A model generated the notes under the pieces. The model did no database searches. It was not told the origin of the DNA and was given only the letters and a program-made list of their open reading frames with translations. 64,000 nt of DNA. Source: Rhizobium rhizogenes. GTDB taxonomy: Bacteria; Pseudomonadota; Alphaproteobacteria; Rhizobiales; Rhizobiaceae. The stretch lies in assembly GCF_002005205.3 (NCBI RefSeq), contig NZ_CP019701.2, forward strand, positions 2,787,001 through 2,851,000, written 5' to 3'. Made by a program: the position numbers and the translations under genes. Shown piece after piece: positions 23,128 through 35,592 of this stretch (position 1 is its first letter; every line of letters starts with the position of its first letter).

Positions 23128-25131
23128 TTACGCCTGTTCAGCAAGCAGCTTCGTACGTTCCGCCTCGACCGTCGAAACGTCGGAAGCCGGAATGTAGTAA
23201 TCGCGATTGTAGTTGAAGGTATGAGCGATCGAGACCGCGATGATGGCGAGCATGGAGAGAGCTGCCAGCCACCAGATGTGCCATACCAGCGCAAAACCGA
23301 GCACCACGCTGATGGCGCTGATGATGACGCCCGCGCCGGTATTCTTCGGCATATGGATCGGGATGAAACCTTCCCTGGGACGGTTGTAGCCGCGCTTCTT
23401 CATATCCGCCCAGGCGTCGACATCATGGATGACGGGCGTGAAGGCGAAGTTGTAGGCCGGCGGCGGCGACGAGGTCGACCATTCCAGCGTGCGACCGTTA
23501 TAGGGGTCGCCGGTTACATCGCGCAGCTGATCGCGCTTCAGGAAGCTGACGATGAGCTGGATGACGAAGGAGGCGATGCCAAGCGCGATCAGGAAGGCGC
23601 CGAAGGCGGCAATCACGAACCAAATCTGCAGCGAATTGTCCTCGAACTGGCTGATACGGCGGGTAATCCCCATCAGGCCGAGAATATAGAGCGGCATGAA
23701 GGCGAAGTAGAAGCCGATGAACCAGAACCAGAAGGACAGCTTGCCCCAGAACGGATCGAGACGGTAACCGAAGGCCTTGGGGAACCAGTAGACGATGCCT
23801 GCAAGCACACCGAACACCACGCCACCGATGATGGTGTTGTGGAAGTGGGCGATCAGGAACAGCGAGTTGTGCAGCACGAAATCCGCAGGCGGAACGGCGA
23901 GAAGAACGCCGGTCATGCCGCCGATGACGAAGGTGATCATGAAGCCGATCGTCCAGAGCATCGGAACGTCGAACTTGATGCGACCCTTATACATGGTGAA
24001 GAGCCAGTTGAAGATCTTCGCGCCTGTCGGGATCGAGATGATCATCGTGGTGATGCCGAAGAAGGCATTCACGCTTGCACCGGAACCCATGGTGAAGAAG
24101 TGGTGCAGCCACACGATATAGGCGAGGATGGTGATGACGCCCGTGGCGTAGACCATCGAGGCATAACCGAAAAGGCGCTTGTTCGAGAAGGTCGAGACGA
24201 TTTCCGAGAACACGCCGAATGCCGGCAGCACCAGAATGTAAACTTCGGGATGGCCCCAGATCCAGATGAGGTTGACGTACATCATCGGATTGCCGCCGAG
24301 ATCGTTGGTGAAGAAATTGGTGCCAACGTAACGGTCGAGGGTGAGAAGCGCGAGCGTGCCGGTCAGGATCGGGAAAGAGGCCACGATCAGGATGTTCGAA
24401 CACAGCGACGTCCAGACGAAGATCGGCAGGCGCATCATGGTCATGCCGGGCGCACGCATCTTGATGATGGTCGCGATCAGGTTGATGCCTGACAGTGTCG
24501 TTCCCACACCGGCGATCTGCAGACCCCAGATGTAATAATCGACCCCGACCCCCGGGCTTCCATCGATGCCGGAAAGCGGCGGATAGGCCAGCCAGCCGGT
24601 CTGCGCATATTCACCGATGAACAGCGAGATCATGGTGATGACGGCGCCGGCCGTGGTCATCCAGAAGGAGAAGTTGTTGAGGAAGGGGAACGAAACGTCG
24701 CGGGCGCCGATCTGCAGCGGCACGACGAAGTTCATGAGACCGGTGATCATCGGCATGGCCATGAAGAAGATCATGATGACGCCATGGGCCGTGAAGATCT
24801 GGTCATAATGGTGCGGCGGAAGATAACCCTCCGAGCCGCCGGAGGCGATCGCCTGCTGGACACGCATCATGATCGCGTCGGCGAAGCCGCGCAGAAGCAT
24901 GACCAGCGCCAGAATGATGTACATGATACCGATCTTCTTGTGATCGATGCTCGTGAACCATTCGTTCCAGAGATAGCCCCACAGCCGGAAATAGGTGAGG
25001 GCGCCAACGACGGCGATGCCGCCCAGCGCCACGGCCGCGAAGGTGGCGACAAGAATGGGCTCGTGAAGCGGGATGGACTCCCATGTCAGCTTCCCGAACA
25101 GGAACGACGTTTGATCGGAATTGACGATCAT
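23128..25131 (-). CDS. cyoB: Cytochrome o ubiquinol oxidase subunit I
   Basis: This 667-aa catalytic subunit reduces O2 to water with ubiquinol electrons and pumps protons. The heme-copper core is complete: [12 protein letters not shown] with the low-spin heme ligand His, [15 protein letters not shown] with the CuB His and cross-linked Tyr, and [11 protein letters not shown] with two further CuB His residues. [14 protein letters not shown] carries the heme ligands. Length and the extra N- and C-terminal helices fit CyoB rather than CtaD. The ATG starts at 25131, 73 bases after cyoA. Confidence 0.97.
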
Positions 25132-26584: not shown

Positions 26585-27913
26585 ATGAGTTATAGCAATG
26601 CTGCTCCATCATTTGGGCAGGCGCCGGAAGCCAATGGTCATGGAACAGATCCGGTCAAGGTCGATCCGGATCGCATCACGATTGCGGTCATTCTTGCGAG
26701 AATGACGGAGTTTTTCGACTTTTTCATCTACGCCATCGCCTCCGCTCTCGTTTTTCCGCATGTCTTCTTTTCCTTCGTCGATCCGCTGACGGCCACGCTT
26801 TATTCCTTCGCGGTGTTCTCTCTGGCCTTTATCGCAAGGCCGATCGGCTCGCTGATCTTCCTCCAGATCGACCGCAAGTTCGGTCGTGCCGTCAAGCTGA
26901 TGGCGGCGCTCTTCACACTCTGTGGCTCCACCATGGCGATCAGCTTCCTTCCCTCCTATGCGGAAGCCGGCATGCTCGCCCCCGTTCTCCTGGCGGTGTT
27001 TCGCATCGGCCAGGGCCTTGGTCTGGGCGGCGCCTGGGATGGTCTGGTTTCGCTGCTTGCCATGAATGCACCGCAGAAACAGCGCGGCTGGTACGCGATG
27101 ATGCCGCAGATCGGCGCGGCCATGGGCTTCGGCCTCGCCAGCGCCTTTTTCATCGTTTTCGTCACGCAGCTTTCCAATGCGGAATTCCTCGCCTGGGGCT
27201 GGCGTTTCCCCTTCTTCGTGGCGCTGGCGCTCAATGTTCTCGCGCTCTTTGCCCGCCTGCGCATGATCGTCACGCCGGAATTCCAGGCCATGCTGGAGCA
27301 GCATGAGCTGGAACCGCGCCCGATGTTCAAGATGTTGCGCTCGCAGTTCCCGGTCGTCGTCACCGGTGCCTTCGTGCCTTTGGCAAGCTTTGCGCTCTTC
27401 CATCTCGTCACGGTGTTTCCGCTGAGCTGGGTCTCCCTCAACACCACCCAGCGTGTGTCGGACTTCCTGTTCGTGCAATTTGTCAGCGCCATTATCGCCG
27501 GCGGCATGATCGTGGTGTCCGGCATTCTGGCCGACAGGATCGGCAGGCGGAAGCTTCTGGCCATTGCGGCTGTGCTCATTGGTCTATTCAGCCTTGTTGC
27601 GCCGGTCCTTCTCGGTTCGGGCGATATCGGCCGCTATCTCTTCGTTCTGATCGGCTTCTCGCTGCTTGGCCTGTCTTTCGGCCAGGCGGGCGGCGCGCTC
27701 GCCTCCCGCTTCAGCCGCGAATATCGCTATACTGGCGCATCGCTCACCTCGGATATTTCCTGGTTGATCGGCGCCGGTTTCGCACCGCTCGTCGCGCTTG
27801 GATTTTCGTCCAAATTCGGACTGTTCGCCGTCGGCATTTACCTGATGTCGGGTGCCGTCTGTACGCTGGTTGCCCTGTGGTTCAGCCGAACGCTGGAAAT
27901 GCCTTCGGATTGA
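26585..27913 (+). CDS. MFS transporter, metabolite:H+ symporter (MHS) type
   Basis: This 442-aa protein with about 12 membrane helices resembles the MHS group that takes up organic acids and osmolytes with protons. Family marks are ARMTEFFDFFIYAIASALVFPHVFF near residue 37, SLAFIARPIGSLIFLQIDRKFGRAVKL (the loop 2-3 motif), FRIGQGLGLGGAWDGLVSLL, and SGILADRIGRRKLL in the second half. A strong AGGAGG precedes the start by 6 bases. It is divergent from cyoA and ends in a terminator. The substrate is not evident. Confidence 0.9.
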   Translation: MSYSNAAPSFGQAPEANGHGTDPVKVDPDRITIAVILARMTEFFDFFIYAIASALVFPHVFFSFVDPLTATLYSFAVFSLAFIARPIGSLIFLQIDRKFGRAVKLMAALFTLCGSTMAISFLPSYAEAGMLAPVLLAVFRIGQGLGLGGAWDGLVSLLAMNAPQKQRGWYAMMPQIGAAMGFGLASAFFIVFVTQLSNAEFLAWGWRFPFFVALALNVLALFARLRMIVTPEFQAMLEQHELEPRPMFKMLRSQFPVVVTGAFVPLASFALFHLVTVFPLSWVSLNTTQRVSDFLFVQFVSAIIAGGMIVVSGILADRIGRRKLLAIAAVLIGLFSLVAPVLLGSGDIGRYLFVLIGFSLLGLSFGQAGGALASRFSREYRYTGASLTSDISWLIGAGFAPLVALGFSSKFGLFAVGIYLMSGAVCTLVALWFSRTLEMPSD

Positions 27914-28011: not shown

Positions 28012-28040
28012 TTGACTCGGCCCATCATGAAATATTATGT
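28012..28040 (+). promoter_or_regulatory. Candidate sigma-70 promoter for the gltB-like operon
   Basis: TTGACT (28012-28017), a 17-base spacer and TTATGT (28035-28040) lie about 63 bases before the leader ORF and about 280 bases before the gltB-like start. The -10 element is weak. Confidence 0.4.
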
Positions 28041-28102
28041 AAGTAATACTGACGTAATTCAGTGTGTCTCATTGCCGGAAATACCGGCCACCAGGGAACG
28101 CG

Positions 28103-28201
28103 ATGCGAACGACGACGATCATTATTTGCGAGAAAGCGGCCATTGCCGCCACGCCGTTTGCCGGCCGCAAAACGACCGTTCGCGCCATTAAACGCCGATA
28201 G
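28103..28201 (+). CDS. Possible leader peptide upstream of the gltB-like gene (32 aa)
   Basis: An ATG with AGGGA 5 bases upstream opens a 32-aa frame beginning MRTTTIIICEK, that is three Thr codons followed by three Ile codons, and ending VRAIKRR before TAG. A CTGCGG / CCGCAG hairpin follows at 28230-28247, and the large gene starts 121 bases after the stop. The tandem codons resemble attenuator peptides of threonine or branched-chain operons, yet the downstream gene is a glutamate synthase homologue. Nothing else occupies the 27914-28321 spacer. Translation is inferred only from the start context. Confidence 0.35.
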   Translation: MRTTTIIICEKAAIAATPFAGRKTTVRAIKRR

Positions 28202-28321
28202 CCAAAAAAAAGAGGAGCAGCCAGGTCGCCTGCGGCTCCGCCCGCAGAGTGCCGGCTGACGCGCCGGGTTTCGGGAAAAGAGGGTGATGCCGCGCGAAAT
28301 GCGCAACGAGAGGAGAGTGCC

Positions 28322-31300
28322 TTGAGTGTGACGGAGCAAAAATTCGGCCTTTACGATGCGGCTTTTGAAAAAAGCAGCTGTGGCGTCGGTTTCATCACCC
28401 GCAAGGATGGCATGCAGACGCATGATGTGCTGAAGCGCGGTCATGAGGCGCTCTGTGCCGTGCCGCATCGCGGCGGCATGTCGGCGGAAGGCGTTGGTGA
28501 TGGCGCGGGCGTGTCGCTGGACCTGTCGCTCTCCTTTTTCCGTGAGCTGACGGGACAAGGTTCCCTCAAGGCCGGCCGGTTCGGCGTCGGCAATTTTTTC
28601 CTGCCGCAGAACCCGGCTTTCCACGGTGAGGCCGTCGGTATCATCGGCAGCGCTCTGAAAGAGCAGGGATTTTCGGTCCTGCTGGTGCGCGATGTGCCGG
28701 TGAATGATGCGGCCATCCGTCCCGCCGCAATCCCTTACCAGTTACCGATCCGCCAATGGGTCTTTTCGGCACCCATGGAATGCGCGACCCTCGCCGAATT
28801 CGACTGGCGCATCCATAAGGCTCTGCTCGCCATCGAAGCGCTCGCTTACACCGTGCCGGAGCTTGCCGGTTTTTATCCGCTGTCGCTCAGCGCGCGCACG
28901 CAGGTGCTCAAGGGGCGTCTGAACTCCCAGGAGGTCATGCCCTATTTCCGCGATCTGACAGATCCGCGCCATGAAGTGCATACGATGTATTTCCACACGC
29001 GGTTCTCCACCAATACCGATCCGCACCCCTCCATGGCGCAGCCCTTCCGCCTGATGGCGCATAATGGCGAACTCAACACCGACAAGAAAAACCGGCTATC
29101 GGAAGCGGCCGTGGCGCTGGCGAAGAATGCCAGCATCGTCAGGCCCAAGGGCCAGTCGGATAGCTGCCGTCTGGACCAGACATTGCAGGCGCGGGTGATG
29201 GAGGATGGTCTCGACCTCGTCACCGCCGTGGTCTCGATGATGCCGCCGGCCTGGGAGAACGACGACACGCTCTCGCCCGGTGTGAAGGCGATGCTGGAAT
29301 ATTTCTCGCTCTATGAGGAAAAGAACGACGGCCCGGCCGCGCTGATCTTCGGCGATGGCACTATCATCGGCGCGCGTCTCGATCGCCTTGGCCTGCGTCC
29401 CCTGCGCACCGTGGAAACGGAAGACTATCTCTGCGTCATGTCAGAGGCCGGTCAGATCGCCTTTCCGGCCGAGAGCGTCATCCGTCGCGGCCGTATCGAG
29501 GCAGGGGGCATGCTTTATTACGATCACGCCGCGCGCCGCGCCTTTTCCACCGTCGAAGCGCTTGAGCTTCTGGCGGCCCGGCGGGACTATCCGTGCCTGC
29601 TATCGGAAGCGCGCATCATGCTTGAGGACCTGCCGGAAGTACCGGCGGAAAAGCAGGGCTCGCCACTGCGTTATAATGGCGATCTGGAACGGCATCAGCG
29701 TTATGTCGCCTATTCGCACAATCAGGAAAGCTTCAAGTTCCTGATGGACCCGATGCTGGCCTCCGGTGCCGAAAAGATCTCGGCCATGGGTTATGGCAAC
29801 GCCATCAACGCCCTGTCCGATCAGGAAGGTGGGGTCGCAAAGTATTTCTCGCAGCGTTTCGCACAGGTCACCAATCCGCCGCTCGACAGTATCCGCGAAG
29901 CCGATGGCATGACACTGCGGGTAGCCTTGGGCGCGAAGCCGAACAGCGGTGCGAAGAAAGCTCGCCAGATCGTCGTGCGCTCCCCGATCCTCACCCACCT
30001 CGACATGCTGCGCATTCGCGAACAGCCCGAGACACCCGTTCGCCGTTTCGAAATGCTCTATACGCCGGTCTCCGACACTGCCGATGCCAACGAAGTGGCC
30101 CTCCGGCAGGCGATCGACGGCCTCTGCGATGAGGTCGTGGCTTTCGCGGCTGACGAAGGCGGCATTGCCGTCATCACCGACCGGCATGTCTCGGCAGGCC
30201 GTGCGGCCTTGCCGATGATCATGGTCGTTTCCGCCATCAATCAGCGGCTGATCGAGGAAGGCCTGCGGCTGCGCGTTTCCCTGATCGTCGAAAGCGGACA
30301 GTTTTCCTCCTCCCATCACATTGCAGCCGGTCTCGGTTTCGGCGCTTCGGCGGTCTACCCACTCGGCGTGCAGTTCCGTGCGGAGGAGAAATTCGGGGCC
30401 GATGCCGACAAGGCGTTCAAGCGCTTCGCCAAGGCGGCTGAAAAGTCGCTGATGAAGACAATGGGCAAGGTCGGCCTGTGTACGGCGGAAAGCTACATCG
30501 GCGGCGAGTTTTTCGAGCCGAACTTCCTTGATACCGACGATCCGGTGCTGAAGCGCTATTTCCCCAATGTGAAAACCCCTGTCGGTGGCGTCAACTTCGC
30601 CGTCATCGCGCAGGCGGTGGCGGACTGGCACCGCAAGGCGCTGTCGGTGAAGGATGAGAACGACATTCCCCTGCTCGGCCTCTTCAAGGAACGTGCGGAA
30701 GGTGCCGGCCATTCCTATGGCACGACGGCGGTTCGCGGCTTCGTGGATATGACGGAGGAAAAGATCGGTTTCGACAAGGGAACCGAAAACGAGGAGGCGC
30801 TGCGCCTCCTGCCGCTCAACCGGCTTGAGGATGCCTTCGGTCTCAACGATGCGGCCTATTATCACAACAGCTTCGACCGGCTGACCCCCGAGGCCATCGA
30901 CGCGTTCGAGGTGACACCCGGTTACCGTTCCTTTGCCCGTATGATGGCGGAAGAAAGGGCGCGACGTCCGGCCGCCCTGCGCGATGTTCTGGAATTGCCG
31001 GCCGATGTGACCTTCGCCGGTTCGGCCGAAGAATTCCGCCGGGAAATGGGTCGCTTCTCCCGGCAGGGCAACAACAGCTTCATGGTGCGCGGATTGCTGT
31101 GCGAAGAGGCGGGAGACGGCGCGTTCCGGCTGCAATTGACCGGTCCGCATGGTCACGAACTTGCCCGCCTTGCCGCACTCGGCCAGTCGCTGCTCGACCG
31201 CTTCGGTGACGATATCGCCGGGCATTGGCTGGAAGGCGGCGCGCTCATGGTTCAGGCGAGGGGTGAGGCCTCCGCCTACCTCTCGCTTATCCGCACCGCG

Positions 31301-33826
31301 CCGGCGAGCGTTCCGCTCGATACGGTGCAGAAGGCGAGCGAGATCACCAAGACGCTGGCGTCGGGTGCGATGAGCCATGGCGCGCTGGTCGCGGCCGCCC
31401 ATGAGGCGGTGGCGCATGGCACAAACATGGTCGGCGGCATGTCGAATTCGGGAGAGGGCGGCGAGCATATCTCCCGTTACGGCACCATCCGTGCCTCGCG
31501 CATCAAGCAGTTCGCCTCCGGCCGCTTCGGTGTCTGGGCCGGTTATCTTGCCGATCCGATGCTGGAAGAGATCGAGATCAAGATCGGTCAGGGCGCAAAG
31601 CCGGGTGAGGGCGGGCAGCTGCCGTCTCCTAAGGTGACGGTGGAAATCGCGGCGGCACGTGGAGGCACGCCGGGCGTCGAACTCGTTTCGCCGCCGCCGC
31701 ATCACGATACCTATTCGATCGAGGATCTGGCCCAGCTTATCCACGATGCCAAGGCGGCGCGCGTGCGCGTCATCGTCAAGCTCGTCTCGTCGGAAGGCAT
31801 CGGCACCATTGCGGTCGGCGTCGCCAAGGCGGGGGCGGATGTCATCAATGTCGCCGGCAATACCGGCGGTACGGGTGCGGCGGCCGTCACCAGCCTCAAA
31901 TATACCGGCCGTGCGGCGGAAATCGGCATCGCCGAGGTGCATCAGGCGCTGTGCGCCACCGGCCTGCGCGCCAAGGTGCTGCTGCGTTGTTCCGGCGCGC
32001 ACCAGACGGCAAGCGACGTGGTGAAATCAGCCCTTCTTGGCGGCGACAGCTTCGAATTCGGCACCACGGCGCTGATGATGCTGAAATGCGTCATGGCGAA
32101 GAACTGCAACATCAAGTGCCCGGCTGGTCTCACCACCAATCAGGAAGCCTTCAACGGCGATCCGCGGGCGCTGGCGCAATATCTCATGAACATCGCCCAT
32201 GAAACGCGCGAAATCCTGGCCACTCTCGGCCTGCGTTCGTTGCGGGAGGCGCGAGGCCGCTCCGATCTCCTTCACCTCCTCGATCATCCGGCAAGCGTCG
32301 GCCAGCTTGACCTCCGGGCAATGCTTGCCGTGGTCGAAGAGGTGAAGATCGACAGCCCGGTCTATATGGAAAAGGATTTTGCGCTGGACGATGCCTTCAT
32401 CGAACTCGTGCGCTCGGCGCTGGTCGACAGCAGGCGCGAGAACATCGAGCTTGGCGGCAATCGTTTCCTCAACAATTGCAACAAGAGCGTCGGCGGCCAG
32501 CTCGCCGTCGATATCGAACGCATGCTGAACCATGAGCTTTCCGACGAAGAGGCGGATGCGCTGCCGGCGGTGAAGCGCGACAGCCGTGGCCGCCGGTTCC
32601 TGGAAGCGGGGTCGGTGCGCATCGATACGTCAGGTTCCGCCGGTCAGTCCTTCGGCGCTTTCTGCAATGACGGCATGGTCATGATCCATACCGGCACCTG
32701 CAATGACGGCGTTGGCAAAAGCGCCTGTGGCGGCACCATCGTCGTGCGCTCTCCCGGCGGCGGTTCGCAAGAGGCGGGCGGCAATGTGCTGGTCGGTAAT
32801 TTCGCGCTGTTCGGCGCCACTGGCGGCCGCACCTTTGTGGAAGGTCAGGCCGGTGACCGTTTCGCGGTGCGCAATTCCGGCGCAACCGCCGTTGTCGAAG
32901 GCGTGGGTGATTTCGCCTGCGAATACATGACCAATGGCGCGGTCTTGAACCTCGGCAGTTTCGGCAAGGGCTTCGGCAACGGCATGAGCGGCGGTTTCGT
33001 TTATCAATACGATCCCTATGGTGATCTGCCGAAGAAGGTCAGCCACGATTCGATCCTGCTCGGCTCGATCACTGGCGAAGATGAGCAGGCCGCGATCCAT
33101 AATCAGGCCGTCCACCAGCTTCTGTCCTGGCACGTCGCGGAAACCGGCTCGGCCAAGGCGGCATGGTTCCTGGAAAACTGGGAGAGCGAACAGCATAATT
33201 TCGTCTACGGCATGCCGCGCGCCCTGCTGCTTTATCAGGACAGCGACGAAATTCTCAAAGCCAAGCCCCGCAAGGAGCTGCTGGAGGAACTGGCCTCCGC
33301 GCTTGCCGCCCATCAGCTACGCAAGTTCAAGCTCGCCTACCGCGACCGCAAGTCCGTGCTGAACGGAACGGTGCCGGGTTACGGCGAGACGGATACGGAA
33401 GACATGTATGCGCTCATCAATAACTACACGGTGTTGAGCATGGCGCAGGCCATCGCCCTGCAGCGGGTGCCGATGGCATCAGGTCCTTCCGATCCCGGCA
33501 TTGAAAAAGCCGTGCGCAATCTCATCCTCACGGAAGATTATGCGCTGATGCAGCGTTTGCTGAAATATGCGCGCGAGGCGCTTTCCGATCATGGCGACGA
33601 ACAGCTTGCGGTGATGATCGCCGCCAAGCGGCTCGACGATTACAAGCAGGCGCTGGCGCGCCGCAACATCTGGTCGGTGGACAGCCCCGGCACCTATGGC
33701 TGGATCATGCAGCAGAGTTGCAAAAACATCGAGAAGATCGGCCGCCTGCCGGGCTTCGAGGAGCTTTTTGCTGCCCGCGCCATACCGGACCTCGCCACCG
33801 CATCCAGCCAGAACAGGGCAGCATGA
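28322..33826 (+). CDS. Divergent glutamate synthase large-subunit homologue with C-terminal extension
   Basis: This 1834-aa protein has the GOGAT alpha-subunit layout. The class II glutamine amidotransferase domain has nucleophile Cys20 (SSCGVGF, after a short propeptide) and MAHNGELNT. The central domain contains RFAQVTNPPLDSIREADGM. The FMN synthase domain has MVGGMSNSGEGGEHISRYG and GAKPGEGGQLPSPKVT. The C-terminal beta-helix has FAVRNSGATAVVEGVGD. The Fe-S cysteines are Cys1256, Cys1262 and Cys1266 (C-x5-C-x3-C), one residue tighter than the usual C-x5-C-x4-C. Several synthase-site blocks differ from classical GltB, such as AGNTGGTGAAAVTSLKYTG. About 185 residues (1650-1834) extend past the normal end, where typical GltB is 1500-1570 aa. 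The start is a TTG with AGGAG upstream. No gltD is adjacent; a CysJ-like gene overlaps the stop. Confidence 0.85.
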   Translation: MSVTEQKFGLYDAAFEKSSCGVGFITRKDGMQTHDVLKRGHEALCAVPHRGGMSAEGVGDGAGVSLDLSLSFFRELTGQGSLKAGRFGVGNFFLPQNPAFHGEAVGIIGSALKEQGFSVLLVRDVPVNDAAIRPAAIPYQLPIRQWVFSAPMECATLAEFDWRIHKALLAIEALAYTVPELAGFYPLSLSARTQVLKGRLNSQEVMPYFRDLTDPRHEVHTMYFHTRFSTNTDPHPSMAQPFRLMAHNGELNTDKKNRLSEAAVALAKNASIVRPKGQSDSCRLDQTLQARVMEDGLDLVTAVVSMMPPAWENDDTLSPGVKAMLEYFSLYEEKNDGPAALIFGDGTIIGARLDRLGLRPLRTVETEDYLCVMSEAGQIAFPAESVIRRGRIEAGGMLYYDHAARRAFSTVEALELLAARRDYPCLLSEARIMLEDLPEVPAEKQGSPLRYNGDLERHQRYVAYSHNQESFKFLMDPMLASGAEKISAMGYGNAINALSDQEGGVAKYFSQRFAQVTNPPLDSIREADGMTLRVALGAKPNSGAKKARQIVVRSPILTHLDMLRIREQPETPVRRFEMLYTPVSDTADANEVALRQAIDGLCDEVVAFAADEGGIAVITDRHVSAGRAALPMIMVVSAINQRLIEEGLRLRVSLIVESGQFSSSHHIAAGLGFGASAVYPLGVQFRAEEKFGADADKAFKRFAKAAEKSLMKTMGKVGLCTAESYIGGEFFEPNFLDTDDPVLKRYFPNVKTPVGGVNFAVIAQAVADWHRKALSVKDENDIPLLGLFKERAEGAGHSYGTTAVRGFVDMTEEKIGFDKGTENEEALRLLPLNRLEDAFGLNDAAYYHNSFDRLTPEAIDAFEVTPGYRSFARMMAEERARRPAALRDVLELPADVTFAGSAEEFRREMGRFSRQGNNSFMVRGLLCEEAGDGAFRLQLTGPHGHELARLAALGQSLLDRFGDDIAGHWLEGGALMVQARGEASAYLSLIRTAPASVPLDTVQKASEITKTLASGAMSHGALVAAAHEAVAHGTNMVGGMSNSGEGGEHISRYGTIRASRIKQFASGRFGVWAGYLADPMLEEIEIKIGQGAKPGEGGQLPSPKVTVEIAAARGGTPGVELVSPPPHHDTYSIEDLAQLIHDAKAARVRVIVKLVSSEGIGTIAVGVAKAGADVINVAGNTGGTGAAAVTSLKYTGRAAEIGIAEVHQALCATGLRAKVLLRCSGAHQTASDVVKSALLGGDSFEFGTTALMMLKCVMAKNCNIKCPAGLTTNQEAFNGDPRALAQYLMNIAHETREILATLGLRSLREARGRSDLLHLLDHPASVGQLDLRAMLAVVEEVKIDSPVYMEKDFALDDAFIELVRSALVDSRRENIELGGNRFLNNCNKSVGGQLAVDIERMLNHELSDEEADALPAVKRDSRGRRFLEAGSVRIDTSGSAGQSFGAFCNDGMVMIHTGTCNDGVGKSACGGTIVVRSPGGGSQEAGGNVLVGNFALFGATGGRTFVEGQAGDRFAVRNSGATAVVEGVGDFACEYMTNGAVLNLGSFGKGFGNGMSGGFVYQYDPYGDLPKKVSHDSILLGSITGEDEQAAIHNQAVHQLLSWHVAETGSAKAAWFLENWESEQHNFVYGMPRALLLYQDSDEILKAKPRKELLEELASALAAHQLRKFKLAYRDRKSVLNGTVPGYGETDTEDMYALINNYTVLSMAQAIALQRVPMASGPSDPGIEKAVRNLILTEDYALMQRLLKYAREALSDHGDEQLAVMIAAKRLDDYKQALARRNIWSVDSPGTYGWIMQQSCKNIEKIGRLPGFEELFAARAIPDLATASSQNRAA

Positions 33827-35592
33827 TGAAGATACCCTATATTCCCGAAGACGCGCCCTTCAATGGTGACCAGCGCGCCTGGCTCGCCGGCTTTCTGGCC
33901 GGACTCCATTCCCGCGCCGCCATCGGTTTGGAGACATCGGTGGCCGCTGCCGCCCCCAAAACGGCTGCCAGCGTGCTGAACATCCTTGTCGGCACCCAGA
34001 CTGGCAACGCCGAAGCTTTGGCGATGGATATCGCCGCCGCTGCGCGTACCCAGGGCATGCAGCCGGTGGTAACGGCGCTGGACGATGTATCCATGGACAG
34101 TCTCGGTTCCATGAAGCGGGTCATCGTCGTCACCTCGACCTATGGCGAAGGCGAGATGCCTGACAATGCCCAGTTGTTCTGGGAGGCGCTTGCCGCTGAC
34201 GGCGCGCCGCGACTGGACGAGATGAATTTTGCCGTGCTTGCGCTCGGCGATACCGGTTACGACGGCTTCTGCCAGGCGGGCAAGCTCATCGATACGCGCT
34301 TCGAACAGCTTGGCGGCAAGCGCATGAAGACGCGGATCGACTGCGATATCGACTTTGAGGATGCGGCCACTGCATGGATCGGCGAGACCCTGCCGCTCGC
34401 GCTCGCCCTTGGCGGTGGTGATGCGACGGCTACGGCCGCGCCTGCGGTCGCCGAACCGCCGATGCGGGCGAAGCAGGGCTGGAACCGCAAGAACCCCTAT
34501 TCGGCGCGGGTAAGCGTCAATCACCGTCTTTCCGGCCCGGGCTCGTCGAAGGAGATCCGCCACTACGAATTCGATCTTGGGGAAAGCGGGCTCGATTATG
34601 AGGCGGGTGATGCCCTTGGCGTCGTTCCCCTCAACGATCCGAAACTTGTCGGCGCGCTGCTCGCGCATTTCGGCGCGGGCGCAGAGAGTGAAGTCGCAGG
34701 ACTGGATCGCCCGGTCGGCGATGCGCTTCTCAACATGTTCGAAATCTCGACACCCTCGCGCGAGCTCGTCGCCGAAATCGGCCGGCGCGCAGGGCATGAT
34801 GAGCTCAGCCACATCCTTGCGAATGGGGACAGGGAGCAACTTGCTGCCTTTCTCTGGAGCAAGGATATTCTCGATCTGGTCAATCTCGGCGGAAAACCCG
34901 TATTCGAGCTTGCGGAATTCGTGACCTTCCTGAAGCCGCTGCAGCATCGCGCCTACTCCATCTCCTCCAGCCCGCTGGTTGCGCAAAACAGCGTGCATCT
35001 GACGATTGCCAGCGTGCGTTATCGCGCCGAGGGGCGTGAGCGTGGCGGCGTATGCTCCACCTATCTGGCGGATCGGGTGGAGGCTGGTAAGACTGCCGGA
35101 ATTTTCGTTTCGCCTAACAAGGCGTTCCGCGTGCCACAGGATAATGCCGCGCCTGTCATCATGGTCGGGCCGGGCACGGGCATTGCACCATTCCGGGCTT
35201 TTCTGCAGGAACGACAGGCGAGGGGTGCAAACGGCAGGAACTGGTTGTTCTTTGGCGACCAGCACCGGCAGTCGGATTTCATCTACGAAAACGAGCTTGG
35301 CGAAATGAGCCGCACGGGCGTGCTGACGCGCCTCGATCTCGCCTTTTCGCGCGATCAGGCGGAAAAGATCTATGTGCAGACGCGCATGCGCCAGAACGGC
35401 AAGGCGCTTTATCAATGGCTCGAAGAGGGAGGCTATTTCTACGTCTGCGGCGATGCGACCCGCATGGCGAAGGACGTCGACGATGCCCTGCATCAGATCG
35501 TCATGGATGAGGCGGGCATTTCTGCTGAAGCGGCAGGCGATTATGTGAACCGGCTGAAGCGCGAAAAACGTTATCTGCGCGACGTCTATTAG
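33823..35592 (+). CDS. CysJ-like diflavin reductase (FMN flavodoxin / FAD-NADPH domains)
   Basis: This 589-aa protein resembles the sulfite reductase flavoprotein throughout. An N-terminal helix (YIPEDAPFNGDQRAWLAGFLAGL) precedes a flavodoxin domain with the FMN loop VGTQTGNAEALA, VTSTYGEGEMPDNAQ and LGDTGYDGFCQAGK. The FAD module has HRAYSISSSPLV and GGVCSTYLADRV, and the NADPH module has VGPGTGIAPFRAFLQER, YVCGDATRMAKDV and the C-terminal KRYLRDVY. The ATG overlaps the gltB-like stop by 4 bases (ATGA); a second ATG follows directly. No cysI hemoprotein gene is near. It is inferred to pass NADPH electrons to the GltB-like protein in place of GltD. Confidence 0.9.
   Translation: MMKIPYIPEDAPFNGDQRAWLAGFLAGLHSRAAIGLETSVAAAAPKTAASVLNILVGTQTGNAEALAMDIAAAARTQGMQPVVTALDDVSMDSLGSMKRVIVVTSTYGEGEMPDNAQLFWEALAADGAPRLDEMNFAVLALGDTGYDGFCQAGKLIDTRFEQLGGKRMKTRIDCDIDFEDAATAWIGETLPLALALGGGDATATAAPAVAEPPMRAKQGWNRKNPYSARVSVNHRLSGPGSSKEIRHYEFDLGESGLDYEAGDALGVVPLNDPKLVGALLAHFGAGAESEVAGLDRPVGDALLNMFEISTPSRELVAEIGRRAGHDELSHILANGDREQLAAFLWSKDILDLVNLGGKPVFELAEFVTFLKPLQHRAYSISSSPLVAQNSVHLTIASVRYRAEGRERGGVCSTYLADRVEAGKTAGIFVSPNKAFRVPQDNAAPVIMVGPGTGIAPFRAFLQERQARGANGRNWLFFGDQHRQSDFIYENELGEMSRTGVLTRLDLAFSRDQAEKIYVQTRMRQNGKALYQWLEEGGYFYVCGDATRMAKDVDDALHQIVMDEAGISAEAAGDYVNRLKREKRYLRDVY

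What the first reader, a model, noticed from the sequence alone, without database searches (positions are those of the whole stretch)
28322..35592. A GOGAT large-subunit homologue paired with a CysJ-like diflavin reductase instead of GltD
The large gene has all GltB domains but is divergent, and its stop overlaps by 4 bases a gene for a CysJ-like FMN/FAD-NADPH reductase. Ordinary GOGAT uses the iron-sulfur flavoprotein GltD; ordinary CysJ uses CysI. Neither gltD nor cysI is nearby. The coupling suggests an NADPH-diflavin reductase-GltB-like complex, perhaps a different amidotransferase or amino acid synthase. This is my best candidate for an undescribed system.
Basis: partly seen in the sequence, partly recalled or inferred. 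Interest (0 to 1): 0.8.

Follow-up and report, generated by a model that had tools for sequence, protein, structure and literature searches.

The report
Glutamate synthase driven by diflavin reductase
Two adjoining genes appear to encode a further form of the nitrogen-assimilating enzyme glutamate synthase, powered by a flavin-only reductase instead of the usual iron-rich partner, and in many bacteria it carries signs of being switched on when iron is scarce.

Summary
In detail: a 1,834-residue GltB-like gene overlaps by ATGA a CysJ-like diflavin reductase gene. The pairing is not accidental. The reductase gene lies directly downstream in 78 of 80 relatives; the other two end at contig ends. 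Of 398 Pseudomonadota genomes, 6 have this GltB type, and the same 6 alone have this reductase type, always adjacent. The product is probably glutamate. In the genus of Pantoea ananatis, 50 of 60 genomes have only this GltB, 9 only the classical one, one neither, none both, and both kinds occupy the same arcB-sspB site. A Pantoea gltB knockout is reported to be a glutamate auxotroph (PMC12364357, passages). So the reductase most likely replaces GltD as electron donor. This GltB forms a separate clade (100/100) with altered Fe-S cysteine spacing in 83 of 83. New here: iron signals. RirA-type boxes lie upstream in 20 of 24 Rhizobiaceae loci including the window, IdeR-like boxes in actinobacteria, and HemS-like genes follow in 21 of 78 loci. 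I read it as an iron-saving glutamate synthase. Complex formation, electron transfer and iron induction are inferred.

The parts
28013..28027 (+). Iron-responsive-operator-like box TGA-N9-TCA, overlapping a TTGACT -35-like hexamer (28012-28017); proposed RirA site
   Evidence: Exact match; motif from passages of PMC6386902 and PMC8822346; present upstream in 20 of 24 Rhizobiaceae loci. Binding not tested.
28322..33826 (+). Glutamate synthase large subunit of the diflavin-linked class, 1,834 aa
28379..28381 (+). Codon of Cys20, the presumed glutaminase nucleophile (N-terminal Cys after processing)
   Evidence: Invariant in the 18 sequences of A1; aligned with the CG motif of 7mfm and 6s6s; role from the known family
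30659..31312 (+). Stretch before the synthase domain, about 150 residues longer than in 7mfm (residues 780-997)
   Evidence: Unaligned part between the two matches
32087..32119 (+). Fe-S cysteines C1256-x5-C1262-x3-C1266 (classical: C-x5-C-x4-C)
   Evidence: 83 of 83 against 34 of 35 classical, the last without the region; alignments
33230..33823 (+). C-terminal extension, predicted helical; proposed docking part (inference)
   Evidence: Beyond the part aligned with 7mfm and 6s6s; AlphaFold pLDDT 86.1 for residues 1572-1834; no fold match at E <= 0.001
33823..35592 (+). Diflavin NADPH reductase (CysJ-like), proposed electron donor in place of GltD; ATGA overlap with the large subunit

Best explanation
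The pair is a two-subunit glutamate synthase of a separate class. The large subunit hydrolyses glutamine, channels ammonia to 2-oxoglutarate and reduces the imine at FMN. Electrons come from NADPH through the FAD and FMN of the diflavin subunit, probably by way of the large subunit's cysteine-bound Fe-S cluster, instead of through the FAD and two [4Fe-4S] clusters of GltD. This would cut iron per protomer from 11 to about 3. In genomes that also hold classical gltBD, such as this Agrobacterium-like one, it is probably derepressed when iron is scarce (by RirA here, by IdeR in actinobacteria); in relatives of Pantoea and Erwinia it is the only glutamate synthase. Shown by sequence: conserved pairing, mutual replacement at one locus, occurrence without anything like GltD, iron-type boxes and HemS-like neighbours. 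Reported by others: glutamate auxotrophy of a Pantoea gltB knockout. Inferred: complex formation, electron path, product in Agrobacterium, iron induction.
For: Reductase directly downstream in 78 of 80 loci; exact co-occurrence and adjacency in 6 of 398 genomes. 16 of 50 carrier genomes have no other GltB; in 14 of these 16 the best GltD-model hit is 44 bits or less, where a real gltD of the Pantoea genus scores 354-356. In the P. ananatis genus 50 have only this type, 9 only classical, 1 neither, 0 both, at the same arcB-sspB site in 3 loci of this type and 5 classical loci, with gltD read in 2 of the 5. P. ananatis gltB knockout is a glutamate auxotroph (PMC12364357 passages). Catalytic motifs kept. 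Iron: IRO box in 20 of 24 Rhizobiaceae loci, the most enriched palindromic dyad in 18 of them, RirA encoded; IdeR-like site best of its locus in 9 of 13 actinobacterial loci against 3 of 68 others; HemS-like gene next in 21 of 78 loci, and only in genomes that also have the classical type (18 of 34 against 0 of 16).
Against: No enzyme assay, no proof of contact; no natural fusion among the 120 best listed matches. The knockout paper (Hara 2012) was not held, a polar effect is not excluded, and that AJ13355 carries this type is inferred. Two of 16 genomes without classical GltB have 300-315-bit GltD-family hits, not examined further. Eight of 34 dual genomes show no iron signal; 2 of 13 actinobacterial loci have no IdeR-like site and 2 only tie; no consistent Irr box in the alphaproteobacterial loci and no convincing Fur box in the 12 loci tested. 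The IRO box overlaps a -35-like hexamer, which explains part of its conservation. The loci are related, so p values overstate. The IdeR consensus is recalled.
Confidence: 0.73

Rival explanations
1. The diflavin gene is the CysJ of a CysI encoded elsewhere and sits beside gltB only for co-regulation; the large subunit takes electrons from GltD or ferredoxin.
For: Clear homology to CysJ; the genome has a cysI-like gene and no other gene matching this reductase.
Against: All 16 same-family genomes compared lack this reductase at E <= 1e-120, yet 15 of 16 have a two-domain sulfite/nitrite reductase frame. Seven of the eight isolates without classical GltB have a separate full-length CysJ-like gene and the eighth has one in two pieces. 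Reductases linked to GltB cluster apart from CysJ.
Confidence: 0.06
2. In genomes with both types, such as this one, the pair makes a product other than glutamate or uses another 2-oxo acid.
For: A second enzyme in a genome invites a new task; the FMN-side loop is changed (CSGA[HQ]QT in 65 of 83).
Against: The proteins are 67-97% identical over the best segment among the 80 loci, dual and sole genomes alike; in Pantoea it stands in for gltBD; QGAKPGEGGQLP kept in 83 of 83.
Confidence: 0.1
3. The reductase serves HemS-type haem breakdown or another iron-uptake step, and the large subunit is a passenger.
For: HemS-like gene directly behind the reductase in 21 of 78 loci; TonB, ExbB or siderophore-interacting genes behind it in 3 loci. 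That HemS-type proteins need a reductant is recalled.
Against: The large subunit is beside the reductase in 78 of 80 loci and HemS in 21 of 78; none of the 16 genomes with only this GltB has HemS there.
Confidence: 0.04
4. The reductase reduces a separate ferredoxin or flavodoxin, which then feeds the large subunit; the two proteins do not form a complex.
For: Ferredoxin-type glutamate synthase works by reversible ferredoxin contact (PMC8097209); no fusion found.
Against: The diflavin already carries a flavodoxin domain; no ferredoxin gene was noticed beside the pair, though this was not searched for.
Confidence: 0.07

Closest known systems
NADPH-dependent glutamate synthase GltBD (alpha-beta GltS; 1ea0, 6s6s, 7mfm)
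   Same: Large-subunit domain order, CG nucleophile motif, QGAKPGEGGQLP and other active-site residues; same chromosomal site in the Pantoea genus
   Different: Partner is a diflavin reductase, not GltD; separate clade; C-x5-C-x3-C; changed FMN-side loop; about 150 extra residues inside and a longer C-terminus
Ferredoxin-dependent glutamate synthase (1llw)
   Same: Large subunit without GltD; similar synthase-domain motifs
   Different: In the tree it falls with classical enzymes, not with this type; cysteine spacing C-x5-C-x4-C; a dedicated reductase gene is linked here
CysJ, flavoprotein of NADPH sulfite reductase (6efv, 9c91)
   Same: Flavodoxin, FAD and NADP domains, about 40% identity
   Different: Below the CysJ equivalog cut-off; paired with GltB; separate clade
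Iron-sparing responses (for example the S. aureus sRNA IsrR, PMC9410917, passages only)
   Same: Glutamate synthase (gltB2) is named there as a putative target when iron is short
   Different: Here a whole alternative enzyme would be swapped in; this is inference

Membership tests
Glutamate synthase large subunit (superfamily) | GATase_2, central, FMN-synthase and GXGXG domains in order | tested here: met
Glutamate synthase large subunit (superfamily) | Nucleophile Cys in a CGxG motif; QGAKPGEGGQLP of the synthase site | tested here: met
   C20 invariant in 18; QGAKPGEGGQLP in 83 of 83
Glutamate synthase large subunit (superfamily) | Makes glutamate from glutamine, 2-oxoglutarate and reductant | not testable with these tools
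   Indirect only: replacement at one locus and reported auxotrophy
NADPH-dependent GltBD glutamate synthase | Partner GltD with two [4Fe-4S] clusters | tested here: not met
   Partner is a diflavin reductase in 78 of 80 loci; 14 of 16 genomes without classical GltB have nothing like GltD
NADPH-dependent GltBD glutamate synthase | Fe-S cysteines C-x5-C-x4-C | tested here: not met
   C-x5-C-x3-C in 83 of 83
NADPH-dependent GltBD glutamate synthase | Falls in the classical clade | tested here: not met
   20 rows of this type against 32 classical and ferredoxin-type rows, 100/100, unrooted
Ferredoxin-dependent glutamate synthase | Clusters with 1llw | tested here: not met
   only one ferredoxin-type row (1llw fragment) was included
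CysJ sulfite reductase flavoprotein | Flavodoxin, FAD and NADP domains | tested here: met
CysJ sulfite reductase flavoprotein | Score over the CysJ equivalog cut-off TIGR01931 | tested here: not met
   609.5 against 668.15; it passes the broader NF004859
CysJ sulfite reductase flavoprotein | Linked to cysI | tested here: not met
   cysI-like gene at C1:1103993, the pair near C1:2815000-2822600
RirA regulon | IRO box TGA-N9-TCA in the promoter region and a RirA gene in the genome | tested here: met
   Box at 28013-28027; RirA model 296.8 bits, cut-off 193
RirA regulon | RirA binding and iron-dependent expression | not testable with these tools
   Needs an experiment

The most novel reading that the evidence does not exclude
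A further class of glutamate synthase, NADPH-diflavin-dependent and free of GltD, spread between phyla as a two-gene cassette. Unrelated iron regulators (RirA, IdeR) recruited it independently as the low-iron replacement for gltBD, and in relatives of Pantoea and Erwinia it displaced gltBD in place and became the only glutamate synthase. Its one-residue-shorter cluster loop, changed FMN loop and C-terminal extension mark a redesigned electron path from a flavodoxin-type donor.
Probability: 0.58. Interest if true: 0.86.

Novelty: new variant of a known kind. Interest (0 to 1): 0.77.

Why it matters
Glutamate synthase is a central step of nitrogen assimilation, described as NADPH-dependent GltBD, NADH-dependent fused or ferredoxin-driven (PMC8097209). 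A widespread form with a wholly different electron donor would add a class, explain how the glutamate producer Pantoea ananatis makes glutamate without gltD, correct vague database names ('glutamate synthase-related protein', 'sulfite reductase subunit alpha'), and show iron economy acting by swapping a core enzyme. Gene deletions and simple enzyme assays can test it.

Tried and rejected
Natural fusion of the two proteins as proof of contact: none among the 120 best listed of 6,262 matches to a joined query; weaker fusions could be missed. Fold of the C-terminal extension: no match at E <= 0.001; the only related one is a 63-column match to the end of classical GltS at E 1.4. RNA element in the leader: two matches at E 0.23 and 0.28, far below gathering scores. 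Irr and Fur boxes in alphaproteobacterial loci: scattered, no consistent site. Fur box in 12 gamma/beta loci: no better than the rest of the locus. Literature: no paper describing the pair was seen in the listings of ten searches. Two M. abscessus papers searched for the gene gave no mention of glutamate synthase, and PMC10961391 gave no IdeR consensus. The tree had a wrong-frame outgroup and is superseded. In one search the GltD query was a wrong frame, so its GltD rows are void; gltD was read directly in two of the five classical loci and named. The TIGR01317 cut-off is also missed by a true gltD of the Pantoea genus (354-356 bits against 447.7), so I use bits, not the cut-off.

Rows dropped: genomes of 50 of 80 loci went into, and 28 of those 50 into; 20 of 24 chosen rows of this type and 29 of 35 classical rows passed my motif cut into the tree; one search used 18 of the 24 Rhizobiaceae loci; 143 of 150 neighbour ORFs of 30 loci went into. 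In some searches only two or three best candidates per genome were scored. The 24 Rhizobiaceae loci were classed by me from titles and identity.
Full report
What is there. Window 28322-33826 (+) encodes a 1,834-residue protein with all four glutamate synthase large-subunit domains. It just misses NCBIfam's large-subunit cut-off (1041.6 against 1047). The next gene starts at ATG 33823 inside the stop (ATGA) and ends at 35592; it is a CysJ-like diflavin NADPH reductase. The genome also has a classical gltB and gltD on another contig, a cysI-like gene far away, and no second gene matching this reductase. I take the genome for an Agrobacterium relative from 92-94% identity to named Agrobacterium proteins and up to 97% to Agrobacterium loci.

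Is the pairing accidental? No. One genome-contig scan gave the best 80 loci, in Rhizobiales, Rhodobacterales, mycobacteria, Nocardia, Rhodococcus, Pantoea, Erwinia, SAR92, one Lampropedia and one Verrucomicrobiales bin. The reductase gene follows directly on the same strand, within about 210 nt of the end of the GltB match, in 78 of 80; L078 and L086 stop at a contig end. In 398 Pseudomonadota genomes drawn evenly, this one included, 6 had the GltB type at E <= 1e-250. The same 6 held the six best reductase matches (49-100% identity), each beside GltB; the best in any other genome was 45%. In a tree of 39 reductases, the 24 linked to GltB form a group at 100/99 apart from CysJ, with two unlinked long-branch rows (L168, L176) inside it.

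Is it a glutamate synthase? Three lines say so. First, 16 of 50 carrier genomes have no other GltB; by their titles 8 are isolates and 8 are MAGs, and one is the complete P. agglomerans HJS002. In 14 of the 16 the best GltD-model hit is 44 bits or less, where a real gltD of that genus scores 354-356. The other two, both Erwinia, have 300-315 bits in frames of 651-660 codons; I take these for AegA/YgfT-type relatives but did not scan them. Second, in the genus of P. ananatis 50 of 60 genomes have only this type, 9 only the classical type, one 1.4 Mb genome neither and none both, judged by the PF04898 score (252-259 against 354-364 bits; the reductase was not checked in those 60). Both kinds sit between arcB and sspB: this type in L039, L051 and L054, classical in L159-L163, with gltD read behind the classical gene in L159 and L160. 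Third, passages of PMC12364357 say that P. ananatis AJ13355 has no close homologue of E. coli GOGAT, that its putative gltB is 64% identical to an Agrobacterium large subunit, and that a gltB knockout is a glutamate auxotroph, citing Hara 2012, which was not held. That identity fits this type: P. ananatis LMG 2665 has only this type and is 68% identical to the window protein in its best segment, whereas classical GltB proteins are 29-36% identical over the first half and 40-54% over the synthase part. That AJ13355 carries this type is therefore inferred.

How does it differ? The synthase-domain tree puts 20 rows of this type on one side and 32 classical and ferredoxin-type rows on the other at 100/100; it is unrooted. 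The Fe-S cysteines are C-x5-C-x3-C in 83 of 83, against C-x5-C-x4-C in 34 of 35 classical rows, the last lacking the region. The classical DGG[LI][KR]TG loop (22 of 35) reads CSGA[HQ]QT in 65 of 83. QGAKPGEGGQLP is kept in 83 of 83 and 35 of 35. Residues that I recall as 2-oxoglutarate or cross-talk residues of Synechocystis ferredoxin-type enzyme (Q969, K972, Q978, R992, E1013) correspond to invariant Q1090, K1093, Q1099, R1113 and E1134 (the roles are recalled). About 150 extra residues lie before the synthase domain, and 200 residues follow the aligned part at the C-terminus, against 47 in 7mfm. The extension is predicted as helices (pLDDT 86.1) without a known fold. I propose it as a docking platform, which is inference.

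Iron. Upstream of the window gene lies TGACTCGGCCCATCA (28013-28027), an exact TGA-N9-TCA box, the RirA operator according to passages of PMC6386902 and PMC8822346. Such a box occurs between -350 and +30 in 20 of 24 Rhizobiaceae loci, against 10.4% of random windows and 9.7% of 288 regions upstream of other ORFs. In 18 of the 20 it has the TTGA[CT]T form, so part of its conservation may be a -35 element; L016 and L019 have unrelated sequences. Of 1,024 palindromic 3+3 dyads scanned in 18 of these loci it is the most enriched (15 of 18). The loci are related, so the p value of 4e-17 overstates. The genome encodes RirA (296.8 bits, cut-off 193). In 13 actinobacterial loci, a site like the IdeR box (consensus recalled; 3-7 mismatches of 19) lies 133-177 nt upstream: it is better than any other place in the locus in 9, ties in 2 and is absent in 2; the control is 3 of 68 other loci. 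The core TTAGG[CT]TAGGCT occurs once per locus, there, in 8 of 13. A HemS-like gene follows the reductase within 241 nt on the same strand in 21 of 78 loci, in alphaproteobacteria and actinobacteria (a 22nd, L031, is only a fragment). The name rests on Pfam for 3 of the 4 tested and on 7 of 143 neighbour ORFs. Behind it lie TonB, ExbB or siderophore-interacting genes in L084, L046 and L067, but not in L019 or L024. HemS occurs beside the pair in 18 of 34 genomes that also have the classical type and in 0 of 16 that do not (Fisher p 1.3e-4); any of the three signals in 26 of 34 against 0 of 16, though the IRO and IdeR tests are tied to lineages. Eight dual genomes show no signal.

Mechanism. 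The classical enzyme carries FAD and two [4Fe-4S] clusters on GltD, and FMN and one [3Fe-4S] on GltB (PMC8097209, part 1 of section 10). A diflavin donor would spare eight iron atoms per protomer. The simplest account is NADPH to FAD to FMN in the diflavin, then to the large subunit's cluster and FMN, used when iron is short where gltBD is also present. Pantoea-type genomes, without iron signals, would use it all the time.

Rivals. A CysJ role is unlikely: 16 same-family genomes lack this reductase at E <= 1e-120, and 15 of them have a two-domain sulfite/nitrite reductase, while seven of the eight isolates without classical GltB have a separate full-length CysJ-like gene. A different product is possible in dual genomes but is not needed. 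No paper on the pair was seen in the listings of ten searches; many of the named database entries read 'glutamate synthase-related protein'.

Verdict. Pairing and replacement are shown; electron transfer, complex formation and iron induction are inferred.

Noticed in passing
L028 5137-6753 (-) = L168; similar in L032 and L075; L176 (G032:C56:290681-292270): Second, shorter CysJ-like diflavin genes (46-48% identical) that fall inside the GltB-linked reductase group on long branches; in the mycobacterial loci they lie about 3-5 kb upstream of the pair. Their partner is unknown.
   Followed up: partly
L060 (record titled Enterobacter ludwigii EnVs2): The genome behind this record has the same genus label as P. 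ananatis (G427 and G228), so the record name looks wrong.
   Followed up: no
G497 (1.4 Mb): The only one of 60 genomes of the P. ananatis genus with no glutamate synthase of either type; probably a reduced symbiont genome.
   Followed up: no
L164 (G116) and L165 (G254): Two more divergent pairs (reductase 49% identical), at the edge of the family.
   Followed up: partly
window 28028-28321: About 300 nt between the IRO-like box and the start codon here and in several Rhizobiaceae loci, about 60-110 nt in others; no Rfam match reached its gathering score.
   Followed up: partly
L053, L076 and others, downstream of the reductase: Beside HemS, other lineage-specific neighbours occur: an alanine dehydrogenase/transhydrogenase gene in L076 and uroporphyrinogen decarboxylase in the SAR92 locus L041.
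   Followed up: no
window 23128-25131 (-): A cytochrome/quinol oxidase subunit I gene (Pfam COX1) upstream of the pair, beyond an MFS transporter gene at 26585-27913.
   Followed up: no
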